Below, one piece after another: positions 48,192 to 52,969 of a stretch of DNA of 64,000 bases. Origin of the DNA: Erysipelotrichaceae bacterium. Its GTDB lineage: Bacteria; Bacillota_I; Bacilli_A; Erysipelotrichales; Erysipelotrichaceae. Position numbers and translations under genes: made by a program. The stretch lies in contig JAFRZA010000033.1 in NCBI GenBank assembly GCA_017442805.1, positions 1 to 64,000 of the forward strand, written 5' to 3'. The notes below the pieces were generated by a model. The model saw only the letters and a program-made list of their open reading frames with translations. It was not told the DNA's origin and made no database searches. Every line of letters starts with the position of its first letter. Positions within the stretch are counted from its first letter, which is position 1.

Positions 48192-48600
48192 AAAATCACT
48201 CTTTCGTAAGATAATAATAATCTCCGCACAGGTGAAAATCTATATGAAAATTTGTTTCAAAAAGTTATTAACAGAACCTTGAAATCATAAAGCTTTTAAT
48301 ATAAACGTGTTTTTGAGTTTTCCCCCGTTTTCCACAATTTTTGATGTGGAAAACTTTGGGGATAACTTCTTTCCACATTGGGGAAAATGGGGGAAAAGGG
48401 GAAAAAACAGCGCTTTCCAAGGAGTTTTCCCCATAAAAAAGCGCAGAAATACCTTTATATGAAACAAAAAAAGAAATTTATGCCAATAATCCCATCCTGC
48501 TGAAAAGGCGGTTTTCCCCAGGTGGATAACCGAAAAAAGCCGATAGCCGGAATACCTGCGGCGGAAGAGAAAAAGTCATCCTCAGGGCTATGTGCTATAA
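48192..48600. other. oriC: Probable replication origin (oriC)
   Basis: No gene lies here, and transcription diverges from it. From dnaA outward: a triplet run GATAATAATAATC (48210-48222, possibly DnaA-trio-like), an AT-rich stretch (about 48232-48310), then DnaA-box-like sites TTTTCCACA (48328-48336), TGTGGAAAA (48345-48353), CTTTCCACA (48369-48377) and GGTGGATAA (48521-48529). A second AT-rich patch lies at about 48433-48482. The boxes are variants; no perfect TTATCCACA was seen. The dnaA neighbourhood and gene-strand switch support the call. Confidence 0.85.
48327..48354. repeat. Perfect inverted repeat of two DnaA-box-like sites
   Basis: GTTTTCCACA, an eight-base spacer, TGTGGAAAAC: ten-base arms that are exact inverses, each containing a TTTTCCACA box. 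A head-to-head DnaA pair inside oriC. Confidence 0.8.
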
Positions 48601-48623: not shown

Positions 48624-50381
48624 ATGTTCAGAAGATTCATTCAGATCCTGACGGCTGCCGTCATCATCCTGACCGCTCTGACAGTCAGAACTTCAGCTCA
48701 GCAGAAGGCTCAGCTGATGGTTTTGAACGCGGGCATCGAAATGAAGCTCGAACCATCGGAAAACAGCGAACCGCTGAAGATCGACAATGTGGTTCAGTAC
48801 TTCGTCCGGGAAGGAATCTATGACATCAGCCGGGAAATAAACGTCAGTGAAACGGAAAAGTGGTACGGCGTTCTTTTCGGTGATGAGGAACAGAGCGTTG
48901 AAGTCTACATCAACGCGGTCAATGTTGAACTGCTGGACATGGAATTCGAAAAGAAAATGAAGGACGAAGCCTTTCCGGAAGACTACGTGATCCTGCTGAG
49001 GAAACTCCACAAGCTTCACCCTTCCTGGGTTTTCAGCGCCTTCCATACCAACATCAAGTGGGACACCATGGTCGAGAAGGAGAGCGTTCTGCGCAAGAAC
49101 CTGGTTTCCGGGTCCAATGTCAATCTGCGCAGCACACAGGAAGGAGCTTACGATCCGGTTACCGGACAGTTCATTCCCCTTGACGGAAACAGCTGGTATC
49201 AGGCCAACAGCGAGACCATTGCCTATTACATGGATCCCCGCAACTTCCTCAACGAAACCAACATCCTCATGTTCCTGCATCTGGCTTTCAATTCCAGCGA
49301 AGGAGAAGCGCTTGTTCAGCAGGTTCTGAACAACACCTTCATGTCCGGAAAGGACCCAATCGACAAAATCAATTATTCCCAGATCTTCTATGACGCCGGA
49401 GAAAACGCCGGAGCCTCTCCCATTTATCTGGCCACCCTGGCAAAGCAGGAATCGGGAGTAAACGGCAGCAGCGCTACCAGCGGAGCGGCGTTTACCTATA
49501 ACGGAAAGACCTATTCCGGACTTTATAACTTCTTCAACATCGGCGCCTCTTCAGGAACCGATAACTGGAAAAAGGGACTGATCTTCGCCAACGGCGGCGA
49601 AGACGGCTCAGCCACTACCTATGAAAGACCGTGGACCAGCCCGGTAAAGGCCATTCGCGGCGGCGCGCTGTGGATCGTCAAGGGCTACATCAACAAGGGA
49701 CAGGATACGATGTATCTGCAGAAGTTCAACTGCACCTCATACTCGACGTATTCACACCAGTACATGACCAATGTCATGGCCGCTTATTCCCAAAGCAGGA
49801 TCATGTACAACACCTATAAGAACAACGCGGCACTGGATCTGGATCTGAATTTCCGCATACCGGTGTATCTGGAAATGCCGGAAGAAACGGCTCTGCCGAC
49901 CTCCATAACCTATCCGCCCTCACCGAATGATCCCGATCCCAGCGAGGTCTATACCGGCGACATGATCGTTGACCTGGATTTGTCAAACAACGACGGGTAC
50001 CTCAGCGGTTTCCAGCTGTCGATGACGTATGAAGAATTCAAGAACAAGATCAGACTGATCAACAGCGCTGCCACGGCCAGGATCGAAGCCGGCGGCAGGG
50101 AAATAACCGATGAGACGCTGCTGTCCAGCGGACAGATCCTGAACTACACGACGGAAGAAGGGACCAGTACCTATACGATCGTCATCAGGGGAGATCTGGA
50201 CGGCGATGGCCGGATCAACACCAGAGACTATGTGATATACCGCAAGGTCCTGCTGGGAGTCAGTGAAATCAAAGGCGCTTATCTGAAAGCCGCCCTGCTG
50301 GATGGTGAAAGCAAGCCGACAACCAGGAGCTTCATCATCATGAGAAAACACCTGCTTGATATTTCTCATATAACGCAGTAA
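48624..50381 (+). CDS. Secreted N-acetylglucosaminidase-like autolysin with C-terminal dockerin-like domain
   Basis: 585 residues. Signal peptide (about 1-25, ending TSAQ), an N-terminal beta region, then a glucosaminidase-like domain (about 190-420) with the probable catalytic Glu in LAKQESG and conserved YNFFNIGA and RGGALWIVKGYI. A Pro-rich linker (YPPSPNDPDPSE) leads to a beta domain and, at the end, a dockerin-like module: the first calcium loop DLDGDGRINTRDY is intact while the second (LLDGESKPTTRSF) is degenerate. The gene starts just right of oriC with GGAGG and a TATAAT box (48595-48600). The next gene encodes a cohesin-like protein, its probable partner. Confidence 0.82.
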   Translation: MFRRFIQILTAAVIILTALTVRTSAQQKAQLMVLNAGIEMKLEPSENSEPLKIDNVVQYFVREGIYDISREINVSETEKWYGVLFGDEEQSVEVYINAVNVELLDMEFEKKMKDEAFPEDYVILLRKLHKLHPSWVFSAFHTNIKWDTMVEKESVLRKNLVSGSNVNLRSTQEGAYDPVTGQFIPLDGNSWYQANSETIAYYMDPRNFLNETNILMFLHLAFNSSEGEALVQQVLNNTFMSGKDPIDKINYSQIFYDAGENAGASPIYLATLAKQESGVNGSSATSGAAFTYNGKTYSGLYNFFNIGASSGTDNWKKGLIFANGGEDGSATTYERPWTSPVKAIRGGALWIVKGYINKGQDTMYLQKFNCTSYSTYSHQYMTNVMAAYSQSRIMYNTYKNNAALDLDLNFRIPVYLEMPEETALPTSITYPPSPNDPDPSEVYTGDMIVDLDLSNNDGYLSGFQLSMTYEEFKNKIRLINSAATARIEAGGREITDETLLSSGQILNYTTEEGTSTYTIVIRGDLDGDGRINTRDYVIYRKVLLGVSEIKGAYLKAALLDGESKPTTRSFIIMRKHLLDISHITQ

Positions 50382-50395
50382 GGAGGGAAGAGGAA

Positions 50396-51706
50396 ATGAA
50401 AAGAAAGATACTCATCATCATGACAAGTCTGCTGGTCACCCTTTCCGCTCTTACCTGCGTAAAGGCAGCCAGCGGAAGCGCCAGCGTTTCCGTCAGCAAT
50501 TCTTCGCCGGTCGTCGGCAACAAGATAACGCTGACGATCAAGCTGTCCTGTAATGACGGCGTCGGTGCAGCCATGGTCTACATCGACTACAACAGCAGTT
50601 ACCTCAGCAATCTGTCCGTCAAGAACAGCTCTTCAGTCTACGCCAACGGCAACAAGATCATCGTAGATGGCGCCGACAGCAAGTCCGTCACCATAACCGC
50701 GACCCTGACAACCAAGAAGATCGGCAACACTTCCATACAGGTGACCGTTGACGACTGGTGCAGCTTCGCTTCGGAGGAATACATATCTGACAAGTCGATC
50801 ACCAAGAAGATCAGCATCGTCGCCAAGAGCGGCAACAACCCTTCACCGACCGACCTGTCCAAGGACGCTTCGCTGGCCTCCCTGGAGATCGAGGGTCTGG
50901 TGCTGGAAACCGAATTCGAAAGCGATGTCTTTGAATATACCGTCTATGCCCCCGCCAACACGGCCGTCGTTAAGGTCAACGCCAAGGCCAGCAGCGCCAA
51001 GGCCAGAATTGAAAAGACGGAATTCCCCGTTCAGGAAGGCTGGAACAGGCTTGATGTCATCTGCACGGCGGAAAACGGCGACAAGAAGACGTACACCCTC
51101 AATGTCTATGTTGAGGAAAAACCAACCGTATACTTTAATGAAAATACCCTGGGCGTGGTAAAGAACCTTGAACGGCTCACCGTTCCCGAAGGCTTTGAGG
51201 AAAGAAAGCTGACCGTTCAGGATGAAGAAATCAGCGTCTTCACCCGGGAAAAACTGAATCTGATTTATCTGGTTGATGAAGCCGGACAGGCAGATTTCTA
51301 TGTCTATGACGAAGAAAGGGAAACCGTCATCAGACGGTATGATCCGGTGGAGATCGACGGCCACAGCTACCTGCTGGTCAACAGTGATTACCAGCAGCAT
51401 CAGGAGATGGAAGAAGACTTCGTTCACTACAAGGTCTACATCGGCGAAACCGGCATCGACGGCTGGAAGTACCGGAACCAGAGCCTGTATGAATACGCCG
51501 TCATCGAGCTGATGGACGAAAACGGCAACAGCCGGCTGTACAGCTATGATCTGATCGAAAGGACCGTGCAGAGGTTTACGCTTCGGCAACCGGAAAAGAA
51601 GGAAAGTCCGTTAGGCAGCTATCTCAGCTACTCCGCGGCCGTGGCCGGCTTTGCGGCCTTTATCGCCGCTCTGGTTCTGGCGACCAGGAAAAAGACATCA
51701 GCGTAA
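50396..51706 (+). CDS. Membrane-anchored surface protein with cohesin-like and cadherin-like domains
   Basis: 436 residues. Signal peptide (about 1-24), a cohesin-like beta domain (about 26-145, SVSVSNSSPVVGNKITLTIKL and VYIDYNSSYLSNL), a cadherin-like beta-sandwich domain (about 158-245, LASLEIEGLVLETEFESDVFEYTVYAP), an unassigned 140-residue region, and a C-terminal transmembrane anchor (about 405-430) with basic tail. It lies 14 bases after the dockerin-bearing gene behind AAGGAGG. This predicts a two-protein system in which the anchor holds the autolysin at the cell surface. Pairing is inferred from domains and adjacency. Confidence 0.78.
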   Translation: MKRKILIIMTSLLVTLSALTCVKAASGSASVSVSNSSPVVGNKITLTIKLSCNDGVGAAMVYIDYNSSYLSNLSVKNSSSVYANGNKIIVDGADSKSVTITATLTTKKIGNTSIQVTVDDWCSFASEEYISDKSITKKISIVAKSGNNPSPTDLSKDASLASLEIEGLVLETEFESDVFEYTVYAPANTAVVKVNAKASSAKARIEKTEFPVQEGWNRLDVICTAENGDKKTYTLNVYVEEKPTVYFNENTLGVVKNLERLTVPEGFEERKLTVQDEEISVFTREKLNLIYLVDEAGQADFYVYDEERETVIRRYDPVEIDGHSYLLVNSDYQQHQEMEEDFVHYKVYIGETGIDGWKYRNQSLYEYAVIELMDENGNSRLYSYDLIERTVQRFTLRQPEKKESPLGSYLSYSAAVAGFAAFIAALVLATRKKTSA

Positions 51707-51775: not shown

Positions 51776-52969
51776 ATGGATGAATACTTTGATATTGAGG
51801 AAAAGAAAAACGAAGAGGAAATAAAAGAGCAGCAAGAGGAACAGGTAGATGTCCGTCAGGAAACCTACCCCCTCGAAAGGGAAAAGAGCAGCGGCGTGAA
51901 AGCCGGCTGGCTGATCCTTGCCGTGGCTGGTTCCCTGCTGCTTTCCGTCATCAGCTCGGTGGTGACCGCCGGCATCGTCGCCAAGAAGGCCGTCAGCACC
52001 GTGGTCGTCTATGAAGGAAAGGAAAAGGAAGAAACCAGAGTCATTCAGCAGACCGATTACACGGAGCTGGTTGAAGAAGTAAAGAATACCGTTGTGGAAG
52101 TATACACCGAACAGGTTTCCTATAACAGCTATTTCGGCAACTACGTCACCGAAGGAGCCGGCAGCGGCGTCATCTATTCGGCTGACGGCTACATCATCAC
52201 CAACAACCACGTCATCGATGGCGCCAGCAGCATCTTCGTCACCCTGGCCAACGGCGAGAAGTACAACGCCGAACTGGTAGCCACTGACGTCAAGAGCGAT
52301 CTGGCAGTCATCAGGATCGAAGCCGAAGGACTGCAGCCGGCCGTACTGGGCAACAGTGAAAAGATCGCGGTCGGTCAGATCTGCATCGCCATCGGCAACC
52401 CGATGGGTACGCTGGGCGGAACGGTTACCGCCGGCATCGTCAGCGGTCTGTCCCGCGATGTCACCATTGAGAACGTTCCGATGACCCTGATGCAGATCAA
52501 CGTGGCCATTTCCCCGGGCAACTCCGGCGGCGGTCTGTTCAGCAGCAACGGCGAGCTGATCGGCATCGTCAACGCCAAGAGCGTCAGCGAAAACGTCGAA
52601 GGCATCGGCTTTGCCATTCCGATCGATGTCGTCAAAGAGGTGGTCGAACAGCTGATCACCCAGGGCTATGTCACCGGCAGAGCTCAGCTGGGCATCAAGT
52701 GCGTCAGCATCGACAGCGTTCAGAAAGCCTGGAACTACAATGTTACCAGCTACGGCGTTCTGGTCATGGAAGCCGTTGAGGAAAACGCCAAGGCAGCAGG
52801 CCTGCAGGAAAACGACCTGATCGTCGCCGTTGACGGCACCAAGGTTGAAAGCCTGGCGGCGGTGCAGAAACTGCTGTACGGTTACCAGGCCGGTCAGAAG
52901 GTGACCCTGACTGTCCTGAGAGAAGGTCAGCAGATCAGCGTTGATCTGGTCCTCAGTCAGAAGAAATAA
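51776..52969 (+). CDS. htrA: HtrA/DegP-family membrane-anchored serine protease
   Basis: 397 residues: an acidic cytoplasmic N-terminus, one transmembrane segment (about 45-68), a trypsin-like domain with His145 (NNHVID), Asp175 (KSDLAVI) and Ser250 (SPGNSGGG), and a C-terminal PDZ domain (about 300-395). The ATG at 51776 follows AAAGGAG; an upstream in-frame ATG lies before that site. It degrades or refolds proteins outside the membrane. It may process the two surface proteins encoded upstream, but this is only context. The gene occurs near the origin in many Bacillota. Confidence 0.95.
   Translation: MDEYFDIEEKKNEEEIKEQQEEQVDVRQETYPLEREKSSGVKAGWLILAVAGSLLLSVISSVVTAGIVAKKAVSTVVVYEGKEKEETRVIQQTDYTELVEEVKNTVVEVYTEQVSYNSYFGNYVTEGAGSGVIYSADGYIITNNHVIDGASSIFVTLANGEKYNAELVATDVKSDLAVIRIEAEGLQPAVLGNSEKIAVGQICIAIGNPMGTLGGTVTAGIVSGLSRDVTIENVPMTLMQINVAISPGNSGGGLFSSNGELIGIVNAKSVSENVEGIGFAIPIDVVKEVVEQLITQGYVTGRAQLGIKCVSIDSVQKAWNYNVTSYGVLVMEAVEENAKAAGLQENDLIVAVDGTKVESLAAVQKLLYGYQAGQKVTLTVLREGQQISVDLVLSQKK

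What the first reader, a model, noticed from the sequence alone, without database searches (positions are those of the whole stretch)
48624..51706. Cohesin-dockerin pair tethering a wall hydrolase beside oriC
Seen: a glucosaminidase-like protein ending in a dockerin-like module (one intact calcium loop, one degenerate) is followed 14 bases later by a membrane-anchored protein with a cohesin-like domain. Known: cohesin-dockerin pairs build cellulosomes and, in some clostridia, complexes of surface glycosidases. Inference: a minimal one-to-one, non-cellulosomal system attaches an autolysin to the membrane, possibly tuned by HtrA encoded next. The half-degenerate dockerin suggests single-mode binding.
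Basis: partly seen in the sequence, partly recalled or inferred. Interest (0 to 1): 0.65.

Follow-up and report, generated by a model that had tools for sequence, protein, structure and literature searches.

The report
Cohesin–dockerin tether for a wall hydrolase
Two adjacent genes, repeated in many gut Bacillota, appear to encode a secreted enzyme that cuts the bacterium's own wall and a membrane protein that holds it by the plug-and-socket (dockerin–cohesin) joint best known from cellulose-degrading complexes; if confirmed, it shows that joint placing a wall enzyme at the membrane instead of digesting food.

Summary
P0001 is a secreted SagB-like glucosaminidase ending in an X-like module and a dockerin with one intact calcium loop; P0002, 14 nt downstream, is signal peptide, cohesin, Cadherin-like domain, C-domain, transmembrane helix. 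Pfam Cohesin misses P0002 (13.6 bits), but the genus profile hits only cohesins in the PDB at E<0.01 (best 3e-5), and model residues 24-146 match Clostridium perfringens non-cellulosomal cohesins best (Z 13). In 145 family genomes, 33 of 33 full-length anchors have a dockerin gene just upstream; the arrangement recurs across Bacillota. AlphaFold2 of a natural read-through dockerin–cohesin stretch from a relative gives pTM 0.86, against 0.54 for multidomain P0002. Best reading: a dedicated, non-cellulosomal cohesin–dockerin tether holding a wall glucosaminidase at the membrane, functionally like SagB–SpdC. Not shown: binding, activity, any role of HtrA. Complications: the genome has two other cohesin-matching proteins, and many Lachnospiraceae keep the enzyme and cohesin-anchor genes without a dockerin (13 of 17 checked genomes have none), so the pair may be older than, or independent of, the dockerin. 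New variant of a known kind.

The parts
48624..50381 (+). P0001: secreted SagB-like N-acetylglucosaminidase with C-terminal X-like module and dockerin
48624..48698 (+). signal peptide of P0001 (residues 1-25, ...TSA|QQ)
   Evidence: sequence; inference
49092..49823 (+). glucosaminidase catalytic region (residues 157-400); E276 (codon 49449-49451) aligns with the conserved Glu of AtlE/Atl/SagB and is invariant in A2
49956..50183 (+). X-like module (residues 445-520) preceding the dockerin, conserved with it
50190..50378 (+). dockerin (residues 523-585); intact Ca loop 50193-50228 (DLDGDGRINTRD), degenerate loop 50295-50330 (LLDGESKPTTRS)
50382..50395 (+). 14-nt gap with Shine-Dalgarno-like GGAGG; overlap of 4 nt to about 16 nt gap in near relatives
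50396..51706 (+). P0002: membrane-anchored cohesin receptor
50396..50467 (+). signal peptide of P0002 (residues 1-24)
   Evidence: inference
50468..50830 (+). cohesin domain (about residues 25-145)
50876..51109 (+). Cadherin-like beta-sandwich domain PF12733 (residues 161-238)
   Evidence: E=1.8e-9
51122..51580 (+). conserved beta-rich C-domain (residues 243-395), no Pfam family; W357, Y382, Q392 invariant in A1
51611..51700 (+). C-terminal transmembrane helix and short basic tail (residues about 406-435)
   Evidence: sequence
51776..52969 (+). HtrA-like serine protease; third gene in the genus and sister-genus loci, not in other lineages (associated, not part of the core pair)
48328..48529 (.). 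four near-consensus DnaA boxes in the dnaA/P0001 intergenic region (oriC-like)

Best explanation
P0001 and P0002 form a dedicated two-component, non-cellulosomal cohesin-dockerin complex. P0001 is exported, its dockerin (with the X-like module) plugs into the N-terminal cohesin of P0002, and P0002's transmembrane helix keeps the SagB-like glucosaminidase at the outer face of the membrane, at the base of the wall. There it probably shortens or releases nascent glycan strands during wall growth or division, as SagB-SpdC does in Staphylococcus aureus. Shown here: gene anatomy, domain assignments, near-obligatory linkage in the family, a confident AF2 packing of the two modules in a close relative. 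Inferred: binding in the cell, glucosaminidase activity, membrane-proximal placement, the physiological role.
For: Dockerin and glucosaminidase matches for P0001. Cohesin for P0002: profile to PDB hits only cohesins at E<0.01; homologous anchors pass the Pfam Cohesin cut-off; model residues 24-146 match C. perfringens cohesins at Z 13.0-13.6, then cellulosomal cohesins at about Z 10-11, mixed with unrelated beta-sandwich proteins. Linkage: 33 of 33 full-length anchors in 145 family genomes have a Pfam dockerin just upstream, in unrelated gene neighbourhoods. Across Bacillota 42 of 48 dockerin-bearing relatives have the anchor next door, median gap 11 nt. AF2 of the natural read-through X-dockerin/cohesin stretch of relative L089: pLDDT 92.7, pTM 0.86, linker 66-71; a simple block-PAE estimate gives about 0.5 if the two modules were not placed on each other, and P0002's loosely linked domains give pTM 0.54 at pLDDT 90. 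Cohesin and dockerin divergence correlate over 46 pairs (rho 0.53, largest of 1000 permutations 0.22). P0001 carries the genome's only dockerin match over Pfam's cut-off.
Against: P0002 by itself is below the Pfam cohesin cut-off. Two other cohesin-matching proteins could compete. In many Lachnospiraceae the enzyme/anchor pair exists without a dockerin, and 13 of 17 such genomes have none anywhere, so the cohesin is not always a dockerin receptor. The fused AF2 model has no non-cognate control, its coordinates were not seen, and it is of a relative 41-46% identical, not of the window pair. The co-divergence is confounded by species phylogeny. No wet evidence of activity or localisation.
Confidence: 0.8

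Rival explanations
1. The dockerin is a shared tag: P0001 binds one of the other cohesin proteins in the cell (C12 353-aa TM protein or C18 subtilase) as well as or instead of P0002.
For: Both exist and pass Pfam Cohesin in the genome scan (C12 also in hmmscan); a C12-like protein is found in the genus and sister genus; a few relatives have the dockerin enzyme without an adjacent anchor.
Against: Only P0002 is gene-linked to the dockerin, 33 of 33 in the family; the short gaps suggest translational coupling; C12 is unlinked.
Confidence: 0.12
2. The core unit is a glucosaminidase plus a membrane regulatory partner that touch through other domains (Cadherin-like or C-domain); cohesin-dockerin contact is an optional reinforcement gained or lost by lineage.
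For: 24 of 32 dockerin-less relatives still have the anchor next door, in genomes mostly without any dockerin, and their N-domain is still a cohesin by profile (2e-7 to PDB cohesins). The anchor C-domain is conserved. SagB-SpdC precedent (PMC12272431).
Against: Where the dockerin is present the spacing is tighter (median 11 vs 36.5 nt), and AF2 gives a confident dockerin-cohesin packing.
Confidence: 0.3
3. A small cellulosome-like or foraging complex acting on food or foreign walls.
For: Dockerin-bearing wall hydrolases occur inside cellulosomes (PMC6403190).
Against: A single cohesin on a membrane protein, a single over-cut-off dockerin in the genome, no multi-cohesin scaffoldin found, neighbours dnaA/htrA or ftsA/ftsZ.
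Confidence: 0.05
4. Chance resemblance: the domains are generic Ig-like sandwich and EF-hand-like repeats with no mutual binding.
For: Single-sequence scores are weak.
Against: Profile and fold hits rank cohesins first; near-complete linkage; AF2 packing.
Confidence: 0.05

Closest known systems
C. thermocellum OlpA/OlpC single-cohesin surface proteins with directly docked enzymes (3ul4, 4dh2)
   Same: A cohesin on a surface protein recruits an enzyme directly, outside the cellulosome; single-mode dockerin (PMC5429695)
   Different: There the host is a cellulosome producer and the anchoring, from memory, is by SLH modules; here a transmembrane helix, a wall glucosaminidase, a bicistron, and no cellulosome seen
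Clostridium perfringens non-cellulosomal cohesin-dockerin pairs (GH84C, GH33; 2w1n, 2jh2, 2vo8)
   Same: Closest folds (Z 13); few-component complexes of secreted glycosidases
   Different: There the cohesin lies on the glycosidase itself; here it lies on a membrane protein and the dockerin on the wall enzyme
S. aureus SagB-SpdC peptidoglycan-release complex
   Same: Glucosaminidase plus integral membrane partner (PMC12272431); P0001 catalytic region is SagB-like
   Different: SpdC is a CAAX-protease-family integral membrane protein; no cohesin or dockerin described there
Dockerin-bearing cell-wall hydrolases of ruminococcal cellulosomes
   Same: Wall hydrolase with dockerin (PMC6403190)
   Different: Those join multi-enzyme scaffoldins; this is a dedicated pair
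Limousia mucinolysome
   Same: Non-cellulose cohesin-dockerin complex of gut bacteria (PMC12997984)
   Different: Many enzymes and scaffoldins, host-mucin degradation

Membership tests
Dockerin type I (PF00404) | profile match over curated cut-off | tested here: met
   23.4 bits vs 22.9 in the genome scan, but 19.6 for the whole protein in hmmscan, so marginal; homologue L089 26.3 bits
Dockerin type I (PF00404) | two calcium-binding loops | tested here: not met
   loop 1 intact, loop 2 degenerate in the genus and sister genus; two loops in most other lineages. So: a half-degenerate dockerin
Cohesin (PF00963) | single-sequence match over curated cut-off | tested here: not met
   P0002 13.6 bits vs 24.1; related anchors pass with 34.2, 27.9, 28.7
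Cohesin (PF00963) | homology by profile to solved cohesins | tested here: met
   2y3n 3.3e-5, 1tyj 2.1e-4, 5g5d 6.1e-3; the only hits below E 0.01
Cohesin (PF00963) | cohesin jelly-roll fold | tested here: met
   Z 13.0-13.3, 2.4-2.5 A over 118-119 residues to 2vo8/2jh2
Cohesin (PF00963) | binds a dockerin | tested here: inconclusive
   AF2 fused model of a relative, pTM 0.86; no binding data, no non-cognate control
GH73 / SagB-like glucosaminidase | catalytic-domain homology with conserved Glu | tested here: met
   (E276); not over the NCBIfam SagB cut-off, so SagB-like, not SagB
GH73 / SagB-like glucosaminidase | glucosaminidase activity on peptidoglycan | not testable with these tools
   needs an enzyme assay
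Cellulosome | multi-cohesin scaffoldin and many dockerin enzymes | tested here: not met
   one dockerin over the cut-off and two other single Pfam-cohesin places in the genome
SagB-SpdC complex | SpdC (CAAX-protease family) partner | tested here: not met
   P0002 is a single-TM beta-domain protein, no such Pfam hit

The most novel reading that the evidence does not exclude
The conserved unit across Bacillota is a SagB-like glucosaminidase with a cohesin-bearing membrane partner that places or paces wall hydrolysis at the membrane. The dockerin is one lineage-dependent way of docking; in dockerin-free Lachnospiraceae the cohesin recognises a non-dockerin ligand (another part of the glucosaminidase, or the wall), a binding mode I do not know of for cohesins.
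Probability: 0.3. Interest if true: 0.8.

Novelty: new variant of a known kind. Interest (0 to 1): 0.62.

Why it matters
Cohesin–dockerin joints are known chiefly as the glue of cellulosomes. A widespread two-gene system in which the joint holds a wall glucosaminidase at the membrane would put it into basic wall growth of many gut Bacillota, offer a SagB–SpdC analogue in lineages where none was found described, and give small, calcium-dependent pairs for engineering. The dockerin-free relatives with an intact cohesin offer a natural test of what else cohesins bind. Cultured species with the pair exist (Vescimonas fastidiosa KI236_RS09680/RS09685; Pseudoflavonifractor sp. An44, L150).

Tried and rejected
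Direct Pfam Cohesin on P0002: below cut-off, so profile and fold were used. Alignment A5 (cohesin-only rows of distant relatives) misaligned onto the dockerin half and was dropped. Mirror-tree correlation is positive but confounded by phylogeny; the within-genome paralogue comparison was inconclusive. Tree of catalytic domains: dockerin presence needs about 4 changes, and gain cannot be told from loss because the tree is unrooted. The VIA list covers only the cohesin part of both models; the C-domain fold (243-395) remains untested. Plasmid collection: one hit, V. fastidiosa. Literature (9 searches of an open-licence library) gave no description of this pair; most subscription papers are not covered.

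Full report
WHAT IS THERE. Two ORFs on the + strand, 14 nt apart, divergent from dnaA and followed by an HtrA-like gene. P0001 has a signal peptide, an N-terminal part where relatives have SH3_3, a SagB/Atl-like glucosaminidase region (residues 157-400) with an invariant Glu276, an X-like module and a dockerin. P0002 has a signal peptide, an N-terminal beta-domain, a Cadherin-like domain, a conserved beta-rich C-domain without a Pfam name, and a C-terminal transmembrane helix.

IS THE N-DOMAIN OF P0002 A COHESIN? P0002 alone scores below Pfam's cut-off (13.6 vs 24.1 bits). A profile of 13 genus/sister-genus sequences hits only cellulosomal cohesins in the PDB at E<0.01 (2y3n 3.3e-5, 1tyj 2.1e-4, 5g5d 6.1e-3). 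Anchors of the same architecture in other Bacillota, also next to a dockerin-glucosaminidase, pass the Pfam cut-off (L154 34.2 bits; L166 27.9 and L114 28.7). The AF2 model of P0002 (pLDDT 89.9) aligns over residues 24-146 with the C. perfringens cohesins 2w1n, 2jh2 and 2vo8 at Z 13.0-13.6 and with cellulosomal cohesins at about Z 10-11; unrelated beta-sandwiches (transglutaminase, complement, pilins) appear in that lower range too. I take it as a cohesin.

IS THE DOCKERIN REAL? It is at the Pfam threshold (19.6 bits in hmmscan, 23.4 in the genome scan) because its second loop is degenerate in the genus and sister genus; homologue L089 scores 26.3, and most other lineages have two good loops. 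Repeat identity is 0.42-0.50 in four of five near relatives (0.18 in L090) against mostly 0.75-0.92 elsewhere. Positions 10-11 of the loops are the same in both P0001 repeats (TR/TR), so single-mode binding is likely by analogy with other non-cellulosomal dockerins (PMC5429695) but not proven.

LINKAGE. In 145 genomes of the family, every full-length anchor (at least 400 bits, 33 of 33) has a Pfam dockerin just upstream on the same strand; 60 of 124 dockerin places are so linked, in 50 genomes. The neighbourhood differs by lineage: dnaA and htrA here, ftsA/ftsZ in others, unrelated genes in yet others, so the pair is conserved, not the region. The nearest named relatives are Erysipelotrichia/Erysipelotrichaceae MAGs (L088-L090) and an uncultured Firmicutes (L087). 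A cultured human gut species, Vescimonas fastidiosa, has the pair 10 nt apart, annotated only as 'dockerin type I domain-containing' and 'cadherin-like beta sandwich domain-containing' (its cohesin position is not confirmed by the profiles used). At class level 34 of 198 genomes match the anchor profile at E<=1e-15, some of them through the Cadherin-like part only.

DO THE TWO BIND? No binding data. In relative L089 the two genes are in one frame, so the natural DNA read through its stop gives X-dockerin, linker, cohesin. AF2 on this (30-row alignment) gives pLDDT 92.7 and pTM 0.86, with a loose linker of 66-71. With two modules of about 120-145 residues, a simple block estimate gives pTM near 0.5 if their mutual placement were unknown and above 0.8 only with a placement error of about 2-3 A. 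P0002's own loosely linked domains give 0.54 at pLDDT 90. This supports a defined interface. Limits: no non-cognate control, coordinates not seen, and the pair is a relative's (41-46% identical). Co-divergence of the two modules over 46 pairs (rho 0.53) fits but is confounded by phylogeny.

HOW IT PROBABLY WORKS. P0001 is exported; its dockerin binds the cohesin of P0002; the TM helix holds the glucosaminidase at the membrane face, where it can cut nascent glycan strands. The closest functional precedent is SagB–SpdC, a glucosaminidase with a membrane partner that releases nascent peptidoglycan (PMC12272431). Placement beside ftsAZ in some genera fits a growth/division role but proves nothing.

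COMPLICATIONS. (a) The genome has two more cohesin matches: a 353-aa protein on C12 (cohesin by Pfam, with a cadherin-like stretch by the anchor profile and a TM judged from sequence) and a C18 subtilase of about 2000 aa. (b) Dockerin-less glucosaminidases keep the cohesin anchor in many Lachnospiraceae; 13 of 17 such genomes checked have no Pfam dockerin, yet their N-domains are cohesins by profile (2e-7 to PDB cohesins; 10 of 13 match Pfam Cohesin at E<=0.1). So the enzyme/anchor unit is older than, or separable from, the dockerin contact; the tree needs about four changes of state and cannot say gain or loss. (c) HtrA follows the pair only in the genus and sister genus.

COMPARISON AND NOVELTY. 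Non-cellulosomal cohesin–dockerin pairs are known (C. perfringens toxin complexes, PMC12997984; single enzymes docked on the C. thermocellum surface, PMC5429695), and dockerin-bearing wall hydrolases are known inside cellulosomes (PMC6403190). A dedicated bicistronic, membrane-anchored cohesin receptor for a SagB-like wall enzyme, spread over Bacillota, was not found in the papers searched. I class it as a new variant of a known kind.

Noticed in passing
G000:C12 (L063:2467-3528): A second cohesin-like protein (353 aa) with a cadherin-like stretch and C-terminal TM, no dockerin gene beside it, similar proteins in the genus and sister genus; partner unknown.
   Followed up: partly
G000:C18 (L064:1429-7500): About 2000-aa cell-wall subtilase (Peptidase_S8, PA, Big_2, LPXTG-like end) with a cohesin match and a weak dockerin-like match in the same ORF.
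   Followed up: partly
L119, L123, L127, L130, L132, L144, L145, L164, L093, L122, L128, L142, L147: Lachnospiraceae-type genomes with a cohesin-bearing anchor beside a dockerin-less SagB-like glucosaminidase and no Pfam dockerin anywhere: orphan cohesins with unknown ligand.
   Followed up: partly
L079, L080, L081, L056, L061: In several genera of the family the pair sits directly beside ftsA (and ftsZ), hinting at a role in division.
   Followed up: no
window 51122-51580 (P0002 residues 243-395): Conserved beta-rich domain between the Cadherin-like domain and the TM helix with invariant W357, Y382, Q392 and no Pfam family; possible interaction or regulatory domain.
   Followed up: no
L133 (Ruminococcus bicirculans), L101, L143, L149, L160: Dockerin-bearing SagB-like glucosaminidases without an adjacent anchor; they may dock elsewhere.
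   Followed up: no
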